From contig JAFWNG010000029.1 of assembly GCA_017510405.1 (NCBI GenBank), positions 1 through 64,000 on the forward strand: a DNA stretch of 64,000 nucleotides. The letters are read 5' to 3'. The position numbers and the translations under genes are program-made. The notes beneath the pieces were generated by a model. It was not told where the DNA came from and made no database searches. It saw nothing but the letters and a program-made list of their open reading frames with translations. The DNA comes from Solobacterium sp. (GTDB lineage Bacteria > Bacillota_I > Bacilli_A > Erysipelotrichales > Erysipelotrichaceae). Positions 51,967 through 64,000 of this stretch are shown piece after piece; position 1 is the first letter of the stretch; each line of letters starts with the position of its first letter.

Positions 51967-52594
51967 TTTTGCGTACGATCCTTTCCAGGTCATTCAGAAA
52001 TGCCATGACCTCTTTTTTCTTCATCTTGAAACTGACTTTATTGACGATGACGCGGGCACTGATCTCGGCCACGATATCGTATACGACAAGACCGTTTTCT
52101 TTCAGCGTCGTGCCGGTCTCCATGATATCCACGATGCCGTCGCACAGTCCCAGCAGCGGCGACAGTTCCACGGAGCCGTCGATCTTGATGATCTCGACGT
52201 CCAGTCCCTTCCGGCTGAAGTATTCCGTTGTGACTTTCGGATATTTGGTTCCGATCTTGATATGACCGACCTTGCTGAGCGGATTGCAGTCCTTCAGACC
52301 GGCCACGACAAAGCGGCACTTTCCGCACTCCAGATCCAGCATTTCATAGTAGTCTTTTCCGCCTTCCATCAAGGTGTCTTTTCCGACGATCCCGATGTCC
52401 GCGACACCGTGTTCCACATAAGTGATGCAGTCATTGGATTTGACCAGGAAATACCGGACATCTTTTACCGTATCGGCTATGACCAGTTCCCGGTTCTTAT
52501 GGATCAGACCGTCCACGCCGTATCCGCACTGGGACAGCATTTCCACCGTACTTTTTTCCAGACGGCCTTTTGTCAGGGCGACCGAGAGACTCAT
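51959..52594 (-). CDS. hisG: ATP phosphoribosyltransferase, short form
   Basis: 211 aa, lacking the C-terminal His-binding domain, so it needs HisZ. VALTKGRL, DIGIVGKDTLME, IVDIMETGTTLKENGL. Committed step, feedback-inhibited through HisZ. Confidence 0.96.
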   Translation of the reverse strand: MSLSVALTKGRLEKSTVEMLSQCGYGVDGLIHKNRELVIADTVKDVRYFLVKSNDCITYVEHGVADIGIVGKDTLMEGGKDYYEMLDLECGKCRFVVAGLKDCNPLSKVGHIKIGTKYPKVTTEYFSRKGLDVEIIKIDGSVELSPLLGLCDGIVDIMETGTTLKENGLVVYDIVAEISARVIVNKVSFKMKKKEVMAFLNDLERIVRKNA

Positions 52595-53694
52595 ACACTT
52601 ACCTCCACATCGCTAACATCTGCGCATATCATCTGTACCGGACCCTTTTTCCGCAGTTCCTGCGCAAGTTTTCCGGCTTCCAGCAGTTTCTCCTTCGGAT
52701 AGCGGACCGTCGTGACGGTCACCGGTTCACAGCTGCACGCGTCCAGCAGATAATCCAGCTTCACGCCGAAGCCGCATGCGGGCATCGGTCTTGCCAGCTT
52801 GTCGAACAGCGCGTCATAGCGTCCGCCGCTCAGCACGCCGGTGCCGACGTTGTTGACAAATCCCTCAAAGATAATACCGGTATAGTAATCCAGACGCGGC
52901 GCCTTGCCGAGATCAAACTGGAACTTACCTTCATATCCAAGCGCGTTCAGGACGGCTTCCAGAGCTTCCATCTTCCGGATGATCGCGGTGAGCGACGGTG
53001 CAAAGCATACTGCTTCGGCATCCTGCAGCGCACCTTGCCCGCTGCATAACGGCAGCCGCAGGAAGAACTCTCTTTCTTCCGCGGACAGGTCCAGCGTATT
53101 CAGGAAATTCTTCAGTTCCACCAGGGATTTGCGGTCGATCAGATCGGCGCAGCGGTGTCCCTCTTCGGCCGTAAGACCTGCTTCTTCGCAGGCTTTCTTG
53201 ATGAACTCCACATTGCCGATCTCCAGTGTATACGGGAAGATCCCGATAGCTTCCATGACATCCATCGCGCAGGTCAGCACTTCCGGATCACTTGTTTCAT
53301 CCATTCCGATCAGTTCAACGCCGCAGTCGGTAACTTCATTGCGCTTGCCGGCAAACGACTGCCGGACTTTGTATACCGTCGAACAGTAGCAGAACCGGAA
53401 CGGCGGCTCGCTGTTGGCAAACTTTGTCGCGCAGACGCGGGCGATCGGCAGGGTCATATCGGTACGGAGCGCCAGAAGCATTCCGTCCTGATCCACGAAC
53501 TTATACAGTTCCTCTTCTTTCAGCGAGGAAAACACATTTGCATAGGTCGAATAGAATTCGATCAGCGGCGTATCGATCGGCAGATAGCCGTACGAACGGT
53601 ATACCGCTTCGGTGCGTTTCTGAAGTTCTTTCTTTTTCATGCAGTCTTCCAGGATCGTATCGTGCATCCCGGACGGCAGCTGGATCTGTTTCAT
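52591..53694 (-). CDS. hisZ: ATP phosphoribosyltransferase regulatory subunit
   Basis: 367 aa class II HisRS-like protein without the anticodon domain. Motif 2-like LRTDMTLPIARVCA and RFCYCSTVYK; LGKAPRLDYYTGIIFEGF and GGRYDALF as in HisRS motif 3. First gene of hisZGDCBHAFIE, 17 nt after the T-box terminator hairpin. Confers histidine feedback on HisG. Confidence 0.95.
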   Translation of the reverse strand: MKQIQLPSGMHDTILEDCMKKKELQKRTEAVYRSYGYLPIDTPLIEFYSTYANVFSSLKEEELYKFVDQDGMLLALRTDMTLPIARVCATKFANSEPPFRFCYCSTVYKVRQSFAGKRNEVTDCGVELIGMDETSDPEVLTCAMDVMEAIGIFPYTLEIGNVEFIKKACEEAGLTAEEGHRCADLIDRKSLVELKNFLNTLDLSAEEREFFLRLPLCSGQGALQDAEAVCFAPSLTAIIRKMEALEAVLNALGYEGKFQFDLGKAPRLDYYTGIIFEGFVNNVGTGVLSGGRYDALFDKLARPMPACGFGVKLDYLLDACSCEPVTVTTVRYPKEKLLEAGKLAQELRKKGPVQMICADVSDVEVSV

Positions 53695-57572: not shown

Positions 57573-58718
57573 ATGAAACAATTTGTGATCATGGCGAAAC
57601 CGGTCGGTTCCTACTGCAATATGAGCTGTTCCTACTGCTATTACCTGCATGCGGAAAATCTGCAGGATCTTTCCCGCATGACAATGACGGAGGAAACGCT
57701 GGAACAGCTCATACAATGTTATTGTGAGACCTGCGGCAGCGATGTTCTTTCGATCACGTGGCACGGCGGCGAGCCGGCGCTTGCCGGACTGGATTTCTAC
57801 CGGAAAGCCGTGTCCCTGGAAAAGAAATACCTGCCGGCCGGAAAAACATTCTGGAACAGCCTGCAGACAAACGGACTTCTGATCGACGACGCCTGGTGCG
57901 CTTTCCTGAAGGAGAATCATTTCGACGTCGGCGTCAGTATCGACGGCACCCGCTTCGTCCACGATACCTACCGGAATGACCGCGGCGGCGAAGATACCTA
58001 CCGGCGCGCGCTGTCTGCCGTCGAGCGTCTGAAAAAGCACGGCATACGGCCTGACCTGCTGTGCACGGTCACCCGGGAAACAGCGGAAAACGCCAAAAGC
58101 GTCTACCGTGCTCTCAGCGCCCTGGATACCGGATGGATCCAGTTCATTCCCATCGTCCGCCGTGACAGCAGCGGAAACGTCACCGAAGACTCCGTGACGC
58201 CGTCTCTCTACGGAAAATTTCTGAAGACTGTCTTCCGGGAATGGTTCTTCCACGATCTCGGACGGATCAATATCCAGCTGTTTGCGGAAACCGCGCTGAC
58301 TCTTTCCGGAAAGCCTTCCAACGTCTGCTGGATGCAGAAAACATGCGGAAACGTGATCGTCTGTGAACAGGACGGCAGTCTGTATGCCTGCGATCATTTT
58401 GTCCGGCAGTCGCACCGGATCGGCTCGCTGGCGGAAGGAATGGAAACAGCGGTCACCTCCCCGTTCCAGACGGAGTTCGGTCTGGCAAAAGAAAAGACAC
58501 TGTCCCGTCAGTGCCGGTCGTGTCCGTATCTTGAACTGTGTCACGGCTGCTGTCCGAAGGACCGCTTCCGGATCAATGCGGACGGTGAGCCGGTCTATTA
58601 TCTCTGTGACGGTCTTCTGGATTTCTACGATTACGCCGTCCCGCTGCTGAAGAAAGCAATGGCATACAGCAGCGGCGGAAAGACTCCCGCAGAGATCATG
58701 AAGCTTCTGAAAGACTGA
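57573..58718 (+). CDS. Radical SAM/SPASM anaerobic sulfatase maturase-like enzyme
   Basis: 381 aa. CNMSCSYCYY is the CxxxCxxC radical SAM cluster; the SPASM region has CWMQKTCGN...CEQDGSLYACDHF and CRSCPYLELCHGCCPKD for two auxiliary clusters. The family oxidises Cys/Ser to formylglycine in sulfatases; no sulfatase is in the window, so a peptide target is also possible. The ATG has no SD and follows a hairpin. Confidence 0.9.
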   Translation: MKQFVIMAKPVGSYCNMSCSYCYYLHAENLQDLSRMTMTEETLEQLIQCYCETCGSDVLSITWHGGEPALAGLDFYRKAVSLEKKYLPAGKTFWNSLQTNGLLIDDAWCAFLKENHFDVGVSIDGTRFVHDTYRNDRGGEDTYRRALSAVERLKKHGIRPDLLCTVTRETAENAKSVYRALSALDTGWIQFIPIVRRDSSGNVTEDSVTPSLYGKFLKTVFREWFFHDLGRINIQLFAETALTLSGKPSNVCWMQKTCGNVIVCEQDGSLYACDHFVRQSHRIGSLAEGMETAVTSPFQTEFGLAKEKTLSRQCRSCPYLELCHGCCPKDRFRINADGEPVYYLCDGLLDFYDYAVPLLKKAMAYSSGGKTPAEIMKLLKD

Positions 58719-58836: not shown

Positions 58837-59040
58837 ATGGACCGTATTCCTGTTGCCTGCCCTGACTTTCTGGATCATATGGACCGCTGGCTTTCCTGCG
58901 TCCGGGAAGGAAATGAGGTATCACTGCTGATCGACGGAAAAGAAGCAGCCGTTCTCACTGCACCGGATCTCCCTTTCACATTCCTTACGGATTCCCTGGT
59001 CGGGATCCTGAAACAGGAGGAAGACTCGTGCGGATTCTGA
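58837..59040 (+). CDS. Antitoxin-like protein (Phd/prevent-host-death type)
   Basis: 67 aa. MDRWLSCVREGNEVSLLIDGKEAAVLTAP reads like the N-terminal Phd/YefM fold (REGNEV..L..G...A.L). It lacks the usual long DNA-binding N terminus, so it is short. GGAGG before ATG. Overlaps the next gene by 13 nt, the usual toxin-antitoxin layout. Confidence 0.65.
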   Translation: MDRIPVACPDFLDHMDRWLSCVREGNEVSLLIDGKEAAVLTAPDLPFTFLTDSLVGILKQEEDSCGF

Positions 59041-59453
59041 TCGGCGAAGACATCCTGCGGAATGTGCTTTTCCAAAAAGAACCGGAGTGGCAGAACAGCG
59101 CGCGCATCTGGAAACTGTGTGAGACCGGTCAGATCTGCGGCTATGTATCCGCACTGACTCTATACAATATCTGTGTTCTTCTTCGGACGCACATGCCGCC
59201 GAAGCGCTGTGAAGCCGTCCTGAACGATCTGCGGCTGATCTTCCATCCGGCCGACCTGACGGACATGGATCTTTTCCGGGCTGCCGCCGTGCACGATATT
59301 GAGTATCGTTCCGCGCTGGAAGAAGCAGCTGCCGTGCGTATCCTTGCGGATCATCTGATCACTGGCGAACCGTATCGGTCTCATAACACACTTGTTTCCG
59401 CAATGACGCCGGAAGCGTTTCTTTCTTTCCTGCAGGTCTCTCATGACGGCTGA
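59028..59453 (+). CDS. PIN-domain protein with degenerate catalytic residues
   Basis: 141 aa, GTG start behind AGGAGG. Overall pattern of VapC-type PIN RNases (SARIWKLCETGQICGYVSAL, ARVGADYIIT-like VRILADHLIT). However, the four acidic positions look lost: DTN becomes GED, the second D is N (LYNI), FEDAL becomes YRSAL and IKDF becomes PYRSH. So it is likely inactive as an RNase, or acts by binding. Confidence 0.7.
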   Translation: MRILIGEDILRNVLFQKEPEWQNSARIWKLCETGQICGYVSALTLYNICVLLRTHMPPKRCEAVLNDLRLIFHPADLTDMDLFRAAAVHDIEYRSALEEAAAVRILADHLITGEPYRSHNTLVSAMTPEAFLSFLQVSHDG

Positions 59454-60321: not shown

Positions 60322-61170
60322 TTACTGTTCGTGATCCGGTACTGTAAAGGAAACATAGGTACGGTCATCAAAGCTGACAATGCCGGCAGAGATCCCTTTT
60401 GTGCCGCGCAGTCTGCCGATGCACATCGAATCTTCCCGGAGCGCATCCTGCAGATACGCTTCCGTCTCTTCAAAAGTATCCAGCAGTTTCGGATAGCCGT
60501 CCGACGACAGGATCACCGTGGTTCCCGGTTCAACATGGTGCACGACCACGTGATCGGCGCAGATCTCACCGCCGTTGATCACGTCATAGCCGAACGGAAC
60601 ATCCCTGTTGGCAAGCGCAGTATATTCTTTCAGATACGGCTCGATCTCCCGGCGCCCGTGTGCCGACAGTTCCCGGTCCTGCATTCCTGTGCGGTCCTTT
60701 TCGATCTGGATGAGGAATGCCCGCAATGCCGCAAACACCGCATCGCCTTCTTTTCTCTGACAGTATTCCTCCGGACCGATCCGGTACATGCAGTCGCCGA
60801 AGCTCCACACTTCACGGCGTTCCATGCTGTAGATCACAACGCTGCACTGCAGACGCTCCGCCGGCGGGAGATCATTAAGATCGATCCCGCAGCGCTCATA
60901 CTCTTTCCGGAAACGCATATTGATATAAGCGATGGCCTGCTCGGCCGTCAGGTGCGTGTCCATGGAAGATACCGCGTCTGCCGCAAGCAGTGCCGCGCAG
61001 ATATCCCCTTTCATGCCGTTCCACAGTTTCTTACCTTTCGGTGTCGCTCCGTCAATCACAGCAATATAATTCCCGGTCCACACATACGTATCGCCGCATA
61101 TGTCAGATACTCCGTCCTTTGCAATGACTGATGCACAGTTACGCCTTACTATGTAAGTGTTATCGCTCAT
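60322..61170 (-). CDS. PP2C-type protein phosphatase-like protein
   Basis: 282 aa. AVIDGATPKG (metal Asp-Gly), RLQCSVVIYSMERREVWSFGDCMYRIG (motif 8-like Gly-Asp), VILSSDGYPKLLDTFEE (SSDG). These fit a PPM/PP2C Ser/Thr phosphatase with relaxed motifs. GGAGG before ATG 61170. Ser/Thr kinase partner not seen. Its position in an accessory cluster suggests a signalling or defence role (inference). Confidence 0.75.
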   Translation of the reverse strand: MSDNTYIVRRNCASVIAKDGVSDICGDTYVWTGNYIAVIDGATPKGKKLWNGMKGDICAALLAADAVSSMDTHLTAEQAIAYINMRFRKEYERCGIDLNDLPPAERLQCSVVIYSMERREVWSFGDCMYRIGPEEYCQRKEGDAVFAALRAFLIQIEKDRTGMQDRELSAHGRREIEPYLKEYTALANRDVPFGYDVINGGEICADHVVVHHVEPGTTVILSSDGYPKLLDTFEETEAYLQDALREDSMCIGRLRGTKGISAGIVSFDDRTYVSFTVPDHEQ

Positions 61171-61763: not shown

Positions 61764-62096
61764 TCACTTTTTCAGTATATCCCGTATCCTGTTCAGAATG
61801 TGCTCCTGTTCCTCTGGATCGTCCTCCGGAAACAGATCCAGGATCCGTTTGCCGTCACCTGAGACGATGCGCCGCAGAAGCGGTTCGCCTTCCCCTACAA
61901 TATCCGTATCTTCATCCCACAGACCGACAAACAGATCGATGTGAGAACTCCACATGACCGCGGTGCGCAGGATCCGCGGTTCCTTCAGTCCGTCTTCCGG
62001 AATTGCCAGCACGGTGATTCCTTCTTTTTTCAGTTCTTCACTGATCTGTTTTGCTGTGAGCCATCTGGACACTGTTCCGATCATTACGACTGCCAT
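61764..62096 (-). CDS. Hypothetical 110-aa Rossmann-like protein
   Basis: Strand-helix-strand pattern (AVVMIGTVSRWLTAKQISEEL, GITVLAIPEDG, IDLFVGLWDE) and an acidic C terminus. No family recognised; a small SLOG/TIR-like nucleotide fold is possible. GGGAGG precedes ATG 62096. Divergent from the tubulin-TIR gene across 123 nt. Confidence 0.6.
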   Translation of the reverse strand: MAVVMIGTVSRWLTAKQISEELKKEGITVLAIPEDGLKEPRILRTAVMWSSHIDLFVGLWDEDTDIVGEGEPLLRRIVSGDGKRILDLFPEDDPEEQEHILNRIRDILKK

Positions 62097-62219
62097 ATCT
62101 TACGCCTCCCTCTCTTTTTTAGCATACTTTCTCAGGCGGCGGACAGGCAGAGGTGATTTCTGTTCCCCTTTCCAGTGAGAAAAAGCTGTGTGCTATCATT
62201 TTGTAAACGGAGGTCTCTC

Positions 62220-63257
62220 ATGAAAGAATGGATGATCGGACTCGGCGGCATCGGCTGTCTCACGCTGTCCCGATACGAAGAAAAATACAATTCACCGGAA
62301 ACAGAATACATATATATGGACGCGGATCCCGCATCTCTGCAGGGACGCAGCGAAGAAGACATCTGTCTTCTCTCCGATGAGGTCATGCCCTGCGGCACCG
62401 GCGCGTATCCGGAGATCGGCGCAGCCGCAGTGCTTCGGCCGGAAAGCACCCTGCGTTCGGGCATGCTTGCGGCTCTGCGCAAAAGCCTTTCGGATGATCC
62501 GCAAATAAAAATCGCATTCATCACGACATCGTTCGGCGGCTTCGGGTCCGGCACTGTTCTGCATCTTGCCGCGGCGGCGCTTGGTCAGCTGACTGCGGAA
62601 TTCCCCGATGCGGATATCTATATCCGCATCCTTGCGGTAAGCGAGGAATACTTTCCGGAGCTTGGATGGCCGTTTGAGCACAGTACGTATGCCGCAAATA
62701 CAAAAGCTCTCAAAGCCGCGTATCACCGCATGCTGGATCAGAAACTTCTGGATACGGAACACGTCTCTTTCTTCCTGTTCAGCGATCTCGCCTATGCGGA
62801 ACATGAAGAAGAACTGCTGAGACTGCCCGACAGTAAACTGCGAAAGATCGCGGAGATCCTGACGGATCCGTATGCAGAGCCCCGTCCGGCAGAAATCCTG
62901 AAGCCGTATAAAGGGGATCAGCCGTATATCTTCATCAGCTACGCGCACAAAGACAGAAACAGTGTCATCCCGGTGATCCGAAGCATGACAGAAGACGGAT
63001 ACCGGGTATGGTACGATGAAGGCATCGATCCCGGGACCGAGTGGGACGAAAACATTGCGTCACATGTAAAAAACTGCCGCATGTTCATCGCCATGATGTC
63101 CGACAATTATCTCGCTTCGACCAACTGCCGCGATGAGCTGAACTATGCGCGCGACCTGGAAAAAGACCGCGTACTGGTCTATCTGTCCGATGTACAGCTC
63201 GAAGGCGGCATGCGCATGCGTCTGTCGCGCCTGCAGAACATCCACAAATATACTTAG
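62220..63257 (+). CDS. FtsZ/tubulin-like GTPase fused to a TIR domain
   Basis: 345 aa to the first stop. Residues 1-~230 follow the FtsZ/tubulin_2 order: MIGLGGIGC (T1), IYMDADPAS (T2), CGTGAYPEIG (T3-like ANP loop), TTSFGGFGSGTV (T4 GGGTGSG equivalent), YAANTKAL (T6 Asn). Residues ~250-345 are a TIR: YIFISYAHKD, GYRVWYDEGIDPG, MSDNYLASTNCRDELNYA with the likely catalytic Glu. GGAGG and extended -10 TGCTATCAT precede ATG 62220. The TIR is cut short by an in-frame TAG. Confidence 0.85.
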   Translation: MKEWMIGLGGIGCLTLSRYEEKYNSPETEYIYMDADPASLQGRSEEDICLLSDEVMPCGTGAYPEIGAAAVLRPESTLRSGMLAALRKSLSDDPQIKIAFITTSFGGFGSGTVLHLAAAALGQLTAEFPDADIYIRILAVSEEYFPELGWPFEHSTYAANTKALKAAYHRMLDQKLLDTEHVSFFLFSDLAYAEHEEELLRLPDSKLRKIAEILTDPYAEPRPAEILKPYKGDQPYIFISYAHKDRNSVIPVIRSMTEDGYRVWYDEGIDPGTEWDENIASHVKNCRMFIAMMSDNYLASTNCRDELNYARDLEKDRVLVYLSDVQLEGGMRMRLSRLQNIHKYT

Positions 63258-63351: not shown

Positions 63352-64000
63352 TTACTTCTGTTCTTTATGACTCAGATACTGGGAACACGCAACGAGTCCG
63401 CCGATGAACATGTACTCAAGGACATCATCGGTCTTGACCAGTTCGGGAATGTATTCCTCCTGGATCACTTCCGCGATCTTGCGGCGCAGTTCCACGGTAT
63501 TTGCGACCATGCCGCAGTAGATGACGATCCGCTGGGGATCCAGAGAACTGATGATGGAGATCAGATACTTACTGACGAGTTCCAGAACGCCTTCCGGTGT
63601 GCGGGCAAGATTTGCCGGATCATCGCTGTAGGCAAGCACCTTATTCACATACTGCATCTCGCCGGCAAGAGAATGACTGCCGACGATCAGCTGACCGTTG
63701 ACAACGTTGCCGACACCCGCGGTTCTTGCGGCGCGCGGATGGAAATAGAACGACAGACTTCTTACTTCCTTCTGCATGCTGTAATAGCCGAGCGCCATGG
63801 CGTTGGCATCATTCTGGAACAGGAACGGGACGCCGTACCGTGCTTCAAAGCGCTTCTTGACATCGACGTTCCAGATGTTGGAGGAACGGAATGTCAGGTG
63901 GCCGTCATAGATGACGCCGGGTGTATTCACGCAGATCAGATGCAGATCCGGCATGCGCTTGACGACGATATCCAGCATATCTTCCAGGTCGCGCAGGACA
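63352..64000 (-). CDS. ROK-family protein, 5' end outside the window
   Basis: C-terminal ~215 residues of a ROK sugar kinase or NagC/XylR-type repressor. VNTPGVIYDGHL and the sugar-binding FQNDANAMALGYY (Asn-Asp) are clear, then GSHSLAGEMQYV in place of the GEIGH motif. The zinc motif CxCGxxGC is absent, which points to a regulator or atypical kinase. The frame stays open to base 64000. Confidence 0.8.
   Translation of the reverse strand, partial: VLRDLEDMLDIVVKRMPDLHLICVNTPGVIYDGHLTFRSSNIWNVDVKKRFEARYGVPFLFQNDANAMALGYYSMQKEVRSLSFYFHPRAARTAGVGNVVNGQLIVGSHSLAGEMQYVNKVLAYSDDPANLARTPEGVLELVSKYLISIISSLDPQRIVIYCGMVANTVELRRKIAEVIQEEYIPELVKTDDVLEYMFIGGLVACSQYLSHKEQK

What the first reader, a model, noticed from the sequence alone, without database searches (positions are those of the whole stretch)
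62220..63257. FtsZ/tubulin-like GTPase fused to a TIR domain
The N-terminal part shows the tubulin/FtsZ nucleotide loops in order (GLGGIGC, GTGAYPEIG, GGFGSGT), the C-terminal part a TIR domain with a candidate NADase Glu. TIR effectors in bacteria are usually tied to phage-sensing or cyclic-nucleotide signals. A polymerising GTPase as the sensor or scaffold would be a new input mode: filament formation could cluster the TIR domains. It sits in an accessory cluster.
Basis: partly seen in the sequence, partly recalled or inferred. Interest (0 to 1): 0.8.

Follow-up and report, generated by a model that had tools for sequence, protein, structure and literature searches.

The report
Tubulin-like domain joined to TIR
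A rare bacterial protein joins half of a tubulin/FtsZ-like nucleotide-binding protein to a TIR domain of the kind that destroys NAD+ in immune suicide; the pairing looks new, but it lacks the half that tubulins need to build filaments, and the copy in this genome is cut short by a stop codon.

Summary
Residues 1-215 are a tubulin/FtsZ-superfamily nucleotide-binding domain: a three-member profile hits FtsZ as its five best PDB matches, inspected hits in related genomes are FtsZ or Tubulin_2, and the predicted fold matches CetZ/FtsZ at Z 13-16. Residues 234-345 are a TIR domain close in fold to NADase TIRs (SPARTA, AbTir), with the candidate catalytic Glu306 invariant in 43 sequences. The architecture recurs in two other genomes (a sister species; a distant Clostridiales MAG) and in no other genome searched. 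I found no report of a TIR-tubulin fusion in the papers held. The interpretation 'polymerising GTPase' is not supported: all three members lack the activation domain and T7 loop that FtsZ/tubulin protofilaments need, and the T4 signature Thr is Phe. Best reading: a TIR effector gated by a half-tubulin sensor (nucleotide, or contact with FtsZ/phage tubulin), beside an HTH regulator in a variable interval. Function is inferred; the window allele may be decaying.

The parts
62220..63257 (+). TubTIR ORF as present in the window, 345 aa, ending at an in-frame TAG
   Evidence: ATG supported by GGAGG at 62209-62213 and by both relatives' starts
62220..62864 (+). tubulin/FtsZ-like nucleotide-binding domain, residues 1-215 (strands S1-S6, no C-terminal activation domain)
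   Evidence: profile hits to FtsZ and Tubulin_2; AlphaFold2 model and fold match Z 13-16
62238..62258 (+). T1-like glycine loop GLGGIGC (residues 7-13)
   Evidence: invariant LGGIGC in the three members; aligned with FtsZ GxGGxG and Tubulin_2 GLGGTGC
62394..62420 (+). T3-like loop GTGAYPEIG (residues 59-67); low model confidence (pLDDT below 50 at residues 53-70)
   Evidence: only partly kept in L009
62532..62552 (+). T4-like loop FGGFGSG (residues 105-111); signature Thr replaced by Phe in all three members
62865..62918 (+). variable linker in place of the tubulin/FtsZ activation domain
   Evidence: not conserved among members; pLDDT below 50 at residues 216-224
62919..63254 (+). TIR domain, residues 234-345, lacking the last helix (alphaE)
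   Evidence: TIR_2 E=1e-20; fold Z about 14 to AbTir/SPARTA TIR; the intact L009 TIR aligns about 25 residues further
63135..63137 (+). codon of Glu306, candidate NADase catalytic Glu (NCRDEL)
   Evidence: invariant in 43 sequences; N302-x3-E306 spacing equals N80-x3-E84 of the SfSTING TIR (PMC9402430)
63255..63323 (+). in-frame TAG followed by 21 conserved codons and the TGA that matches the sister copy's terminal stop
   Evidence: codon comparison, differences 6/6/14 by codon position; intact copies in L062 and L009
61389..61754 (+). HTH_3 regulator, upstream; its ortholog (75-76%) lies directly upstream of the intact TubTIR copy in the sister species
   Evidence: only these 2 of 60 genus genomes have a close copy
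60322..61170 (-). PP2C-like protein, divergent from the HTH gene; a 59% paralog is the C-terminal part of a TIR protein elsewhere in the genome; link to TubTIR not conserved in the sister species

Best explanation
TubTIR is a single-protein TIR effector whose regulatory half is a one-domain ('half') tubulin/FtsZ-family nucleotide-binding module. Shown by computation: both domains, their order, the missing activation domain and T7 loop, conservation in three genomes, and an invariant TIR Glu. Inferred: the N-terminal domain binds a nucleotide (GTP/GDP or a relative) or an FtsZ/tubulin-family partner on its remaining nucleotide face; this changes its oligomeric state and brings TIR domains together, which completes NADase sites and depletes NAD+ (or makes an ADP-ribose signal) to stop the cell, most likely as defence against phages. 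The adjacent HTH protein probably controls its dose. The copy in the window has lost the last TIR helix to a stop codon and may be inactive; intact relatives are the ones to test.
For: Fold and profile evidence for both domains; invariant Glu306 and near-invariant Asn302 in 43 TIR sequences; same architecture in L062 and L009; no T7 loop or activation domain in any member; coding constraint but fast divergence: N-domain 50% identical between sister species against 75% for the HTH gene and 83-90% for most flanking genes; a narrow, patchy distribution in an interval whose other genes differ between the two species; TIR NADases are activated when a partner domain clusters them (TIR-STING, PMC9402430).
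Against: No biochemical data. No known defence system was found among the neighbours scanned. The HTH link is seen only in two sister species, so it is a single observation. L009 has no HTH neighbour but an extra helical bundle. Non-defence roles for the many TIR proteins of these Firmicutes (11 TIR matches in this genome) are not excluded. The T4 Thr-to-Phe change may mean weak or altered nucleotide binding.
Confidence: 0.4

Rival explanations
1. One reading: the N-terminal domain is a GTP-driven polymerising tubulin whose filaments scaffold and activate the TIR domains.
For: The nucleotide-binding fold is present; TIR activation by filaments is known for TIR-STING, and Cat1, the best PDB sequence match of the TIR, is deposited as a filament assembly.
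Against: No activation domain or T7 loop in any member, T4 Thr changed to Phe. The divergent FtsZl1 family raised the same doubt about filaments (PMC2875224).
Confidence: 0.1
2. Integrated decoy: the half-tubulin mimics FtsZ or a phage tubulin and senses phage proteins that bind it (FtsZ inhibitors), or phage tubulin subunits docking on its nucleotide face, and then triggers the TIR. (A special case of the best explanation.)
For: A bacterial immune protein that senses a phage inhibitor bound to FtsZ is known (CapRel-Ebc, T7 Gp0.4; PMC13423816), so attack on FtsZ is a monitored event. Fast N-domain divergence. The nucleotide face that accepts a partner's T7 loop is kept.
Against: Gp0.4, SulA and MciZ bind the synergy-loop face of FtsZ, which TubTIR lacks; the N-domain is only about 20-25% identical to FtsZ, poor mimicry; no binding data.
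Confidence: 0.2
3. Decaying locus: the window copy is a pseudogene-like allele without function. This can be true together with any account of the intact family members.
For: In-frame TAG removes the last TIR helix; conserved coding continues beyond it; the intact L009 TIR aligns to NADase TIRs over about 135 residues, the window TIR over about 110.
Against: The first 345 codons are open and show constraint; the stop could be a sequencing or assembly error, or the truncated form could still work; intact copies exist elsewhere, so the family as such is not a pseudogene.
Confidence: 0.45
4. TIR as a scaffold or signalling module without NADase activity, in a housekeeping regulatory role.
For: This TIR subfamily is common in gut and rumen Firmicutes with many partner regions, including TIR-TIR proteins.
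Against: Glu306 and Asn302 are conserved at catalytic spacing and the best fold matches include several NADases.
Confidence: 0.2

Closest known systems
FtsZ / tubulin superfamily (PF00091; FtsZ, CetZ, TubZ, PhuZ)
   Same: GTPase-domain fold, T1 and T3 glycine loops, strand order S1-S6
   Different: no activation domain, no T7 loop, T4 Thr replaced by Phe; fused to TIR
FtsZl1 / Tubulin_2 (PF13809; PMC2875224)
   Same: closest loop spelling (GLGGTGC, SGGTGSG), profile match 96%, no recognisable T7
   Different: no coiled-coil C-terminal part, no vWA/GTPase operon, Pfam Tubulin_2 score below cut-off, TIR instead
Bacterial TIR NADases (AbTir, SPARTA TIR-APAZ, TIR-STING, Cat1)
   Same: TIR fold, conserved Asn/Glu pair, effector at one end of a sensor domain
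   Different: the sensor half is a tubulin-like domain, not APAZ, STING, SAVED or CARF
NTP-dependent conflict systems with tubulin components (Kaur et al. 2020, PMC7159879)
   Same: tubulin-family proteins proposed as parts of bacterial conflict systems
   Different: there tubulins are mainly separate genes with GTPase/HSP70/vWA partners; no TIR-tubulin fusion is mentioned at any place where tubulin or FtsZ occurs in the text
CapRel-Ebc (PMC13423816)
   Same: links FtsZ to phage sensing
   Different: senses host FtsZ bound by a phage protein; a fused toxin-antitoxin with no tubulin or TIR domain

Membership tests
FtsZ/tubulin superfamily (nucleotide-binding domain) | sequence-profile similarity to tubulin/FtsZ GTPase domain | tested here: met
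   (single-sequence Pfam scores are below the curated cut-off; the three-member profile is specific)
FtsZ/tubulin superfamily (nucleotide-binding domain) | tubulin GTPase fold | tested here: met
   models of two family members, Z 13.5-15.8
FtsZ/tubulin superfamily (nucleotide-binding domain) | T4 signature GGTG[ST]G | tested here: not met
   FGGFG[SA]G in all three members
Polymerising FtsZ/tubulin | activation domain with T7 (synergy) loop | tested here: not met
   absent from the sequences and from both models
Polymerising FtsZ/tubulin | GTP-dependent assembly | not testable with these tools
   needs purified protein
FtsZl1 / Tubulin_2 | PF13809 above cut-off, coiled-coil C-terminal part, vWA/GTPase operon | tested here: not met
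   Tubulin_2 E=0.3, 10.7 bits against cut-off 27; TIR instead; no vWA or GTPase among the neighbours scanned
TIR NADase | TIR fold and profile | tested here: met
TIR NADase | conserved catalytic Glu | tested here: met
   E306 invariant in 43 sequences, spacing as in SfSTING E84
TIR NADase | complete TIR domain including the last helix | tested here: not met
   window copy stops before it; present in L062 and L009
TIR NADase | NAD+ cleavage | not testable with these tools
   assay needed
Known TIR defence systems (Thoeris, CBASS, SPARTA, retron-TIR) | system-specific partner domain or gene | tested here: not met
   PADLOC and NCBIfam match only the TIR part of the protein, NCBIfam scores far below cut-off; the neighbours scanned gave no such partner gene

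The most novel reading that the evidence does not exclude
A half-tubulin sensor in bacterial immunity: a GTPase-only tubulin/FtsZ module used as an integrated decoy or docking site that detects interference with the cell-division or phage cytoskeleton and fires a TIR NADase.
Probability: 0.2. Interest if true: 0.85.

Novelty: new variant of a known kind. Interest (0 to 1): 0.55.

Why it matters
TIR effectors are known behind many sensor domains; a tubulin-family sensor would be a new input and would connect immunity with the cytoskeleton, in parallel with the recent finding that a bacterial immune protein senses phage-bound FtsZ. It also gives a tubulin-fold domain that has shed its polymerisation half, a natural test of what the nucleotide-binding half can do alone.

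Tried and rejected
Rossmann or ThiF-like reading of GLGGIGC: rejected, since profile and fold searches return FtsZ/tubulin first. TAG recoding: not supported; 8 of 53 long window ORFs end in TAG. Homologues of the N-domain in phages and plasmids (tblastn) and in viral contigs: none. More members in family, order, class and phylum samples and in the family of L009's genome: none beyond the three. PP2C-like neighbour as a partner: suggestive paralog fused to a TIR, but not adjacent in the sister species, so not claimed; its PP2C identity itself is weak (best member E=0.014; no PDB profile hit). Literature searches for TIR-tubulin or TIR-FtsZ fusions: nothing relevant in the papers held. Foldseek alignments that span both domains have large rmsd, so only the per-domain alignments are quoted. 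The dN/dS values are only indicative because synonymous sites are saturated.

Full report
What is there. The ORF at 62220-63257 (+) encodes 345 residues. Pfam gives TIR_2 at 1e-20 for residues 237-319 and a weak Tubulin hit (0.001) for residues 5-116. One genome of the same genus (G043, locus L062) and one Clostridiales MAG (L009) encode the same architecture, 374 and 521 aa, with N-domain identities of 51% and 30%.

The N-terminal domain is tubulin/FtsZ-like. A profile of the three N-domains finds FtsZ as its five best PDB matches. In an order-wide search its only hits beyond the family itself were weak; those I translated were FtsZ (L063, L072, L073, L080) or Tubulin_2-type proteins (L074, L075, L085), and Pfam confirmed one FtsZ and two Tubulin_2 among them. 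Profile-profile comparison gives 96% to Tubulin_2 and 95% to FtsZ. AlphaFold2 models of the window protein (mean pLDDT 80) and of L009 (81) both place the first 210-215 residues on CetZ/FtsZ/tubulin structures (window protein: Z 15.8 to CetZ, 13-14 to FtsZ; L009: 13.9 to an archaeal FtsZ1) with six strands in the tubulin order.

It is only half a tubulin. The domain ends after the S6 strand and two helices; then comes a variable linker and the TIR. Nothing corresponds to the activation domain or to the T7 synergy loop that completes the active site of the next subunit, in any of the three. The T4 loop reads FGGFG[SA]G, so the signature Thr is Phe. Makarova and Koonin could not identify T6-H7 in FtsZl1 and left its filament formation open (PMC2875224). 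The claim of a polymerising GTPase is therefore not supported, though assembly by another surface is not excluded.

The TIR domain. Its closest folds include NADase TIRs: SPARTA (Z 14.0), AbTir (13.8) and SARM1 (13.0); L009's complete TIR scores 16.2 with SPARTA. Across 43 sequences Ser240, Trp264, Asp266, Ser300 and Glu306 are invariant and Asn302 nearly so. The Asn302-x3-Glu306 spacing equals Asn80-x3-Glu84 in SfSTING, where Glu84 is the catalytic residue (PMC9402430). NADase activity is inferred, not shown.

The window copy is truncated. After the TAG at 63255-63257 the frame continues for 21 codons and meets a TGA at exactly the place of the sister copy's stop. Differences by codon position there are 6, 6 and 14, the pattern of a coding sequence under constraint, and nucleotide similarity runs on across the stop. 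Both relatives carry the extra segment, which forms the last TIR helix in the L009 model. The stop is therefore probably a recent nonsense change or an assembly error; TAG is an ordinary stop in this window. Intact copies exist in the sister species and in L009.

Surroundings. The window genome and G043 share flanks: the gene at 52591-53694 and the ROK gene at 63352 and its neighbours are 83-90% identical, the large surface-protein-like gene at 54-57 kb only 43%. Between them the gene content differs, and the HTH gene plus TubTIR is the only shared content found. The HTH protein is 75-76% identical and occurs, among 60 genus genomes, only in these two; since the two are sister species (ROK 89%, all others at most 60%) this is one observation, not two. 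TubTIR is 55% identical overall (N-domain 50%, TIR 66%), much less than most flanking genes, with most changes at third positions, so it diverges fast under constraint. PADLOC and NCBIfam find only generic TIR similarity in the protein and no partner genes beside it.

Mechanism. Given TIR activation by clustering in TIR-STING, the simplest model is a TIR kept inactive until the half-tubulin changes partner or nucleotide state. A special version is the integrated decoy: phages attack FtsZ, and CapRel-Ebc senses the T7 Gp0.4-FtsZ complex (PMC13423816). TubTIR keeps the nucleotide face, which would accept a T7 loop, but lacks the synergy-loop face that Gp0.4, SulA and MciZ bind, so it would have to detect other ligands, for example tubulin subunits themselves. 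This is conjecture.

Novelty. Tubulins appear in proposed conflict systems (PMC7159879), but I found no report of a TIR-tubulin fusion in the papers held. The fusion is rare: three genomes, in searches of samples of 273, 316, 395, 392 and 299 genomes (overlapping sets) plus one pattern-based scan of about 85,000 species genomes, which reaches close relatives only. I rate it a new variant of a known kind, the TIR effector with a sensor domain.

Noticed in passing
L115 (G000:C15:72073-74418) and window 60322-61170: A 781-aa TIR protein carries a C-terminal PP2C-like domain that is 59% identical to the stand-alone PP2C-like gene next to TubTIR; a similar match exists in G043 (C65). Possible TIR regulation by a phosphatase-like domain.
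   Followed up: partly
L015, L017, L019, L020, L028: Tandem arrays of two to four genes each encoding a protein of about 260-295 aa with a second TIR-like stretch before the TIR domain, in gut and rumen Firmicutes MAGs (second domain named by eye).
   Followed up: partly
G000:C15 (L115, L116): The genome holds 11 TIR matches, several within one contig, including TIR proteins with NTPase-like parts (76038-78506; 149997-151355) and one with a membrane segment and leucine-rich-like repeats (156050-158050); partner domains named by eye.
   Followed up: no
window 58837-59453: Small ORF overlapping a PIN-domain ORF (PIN_3, E=3e-5, just below cut-off), possibly a toxin-antitoxin pair.
   Followed up: no
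window 57573-58718: Radical SAM protein that scores above the cut-off for anaerobic sulfatase maturase (TIGR03942), next to a dienelactone-hydrolase-like gene.
   Followed up: no
window 61764-62096 (-): A 110-aa ORF with no family match lies between the HTH gene and TubTIR here but not in the sister species.
   Followed up: partly
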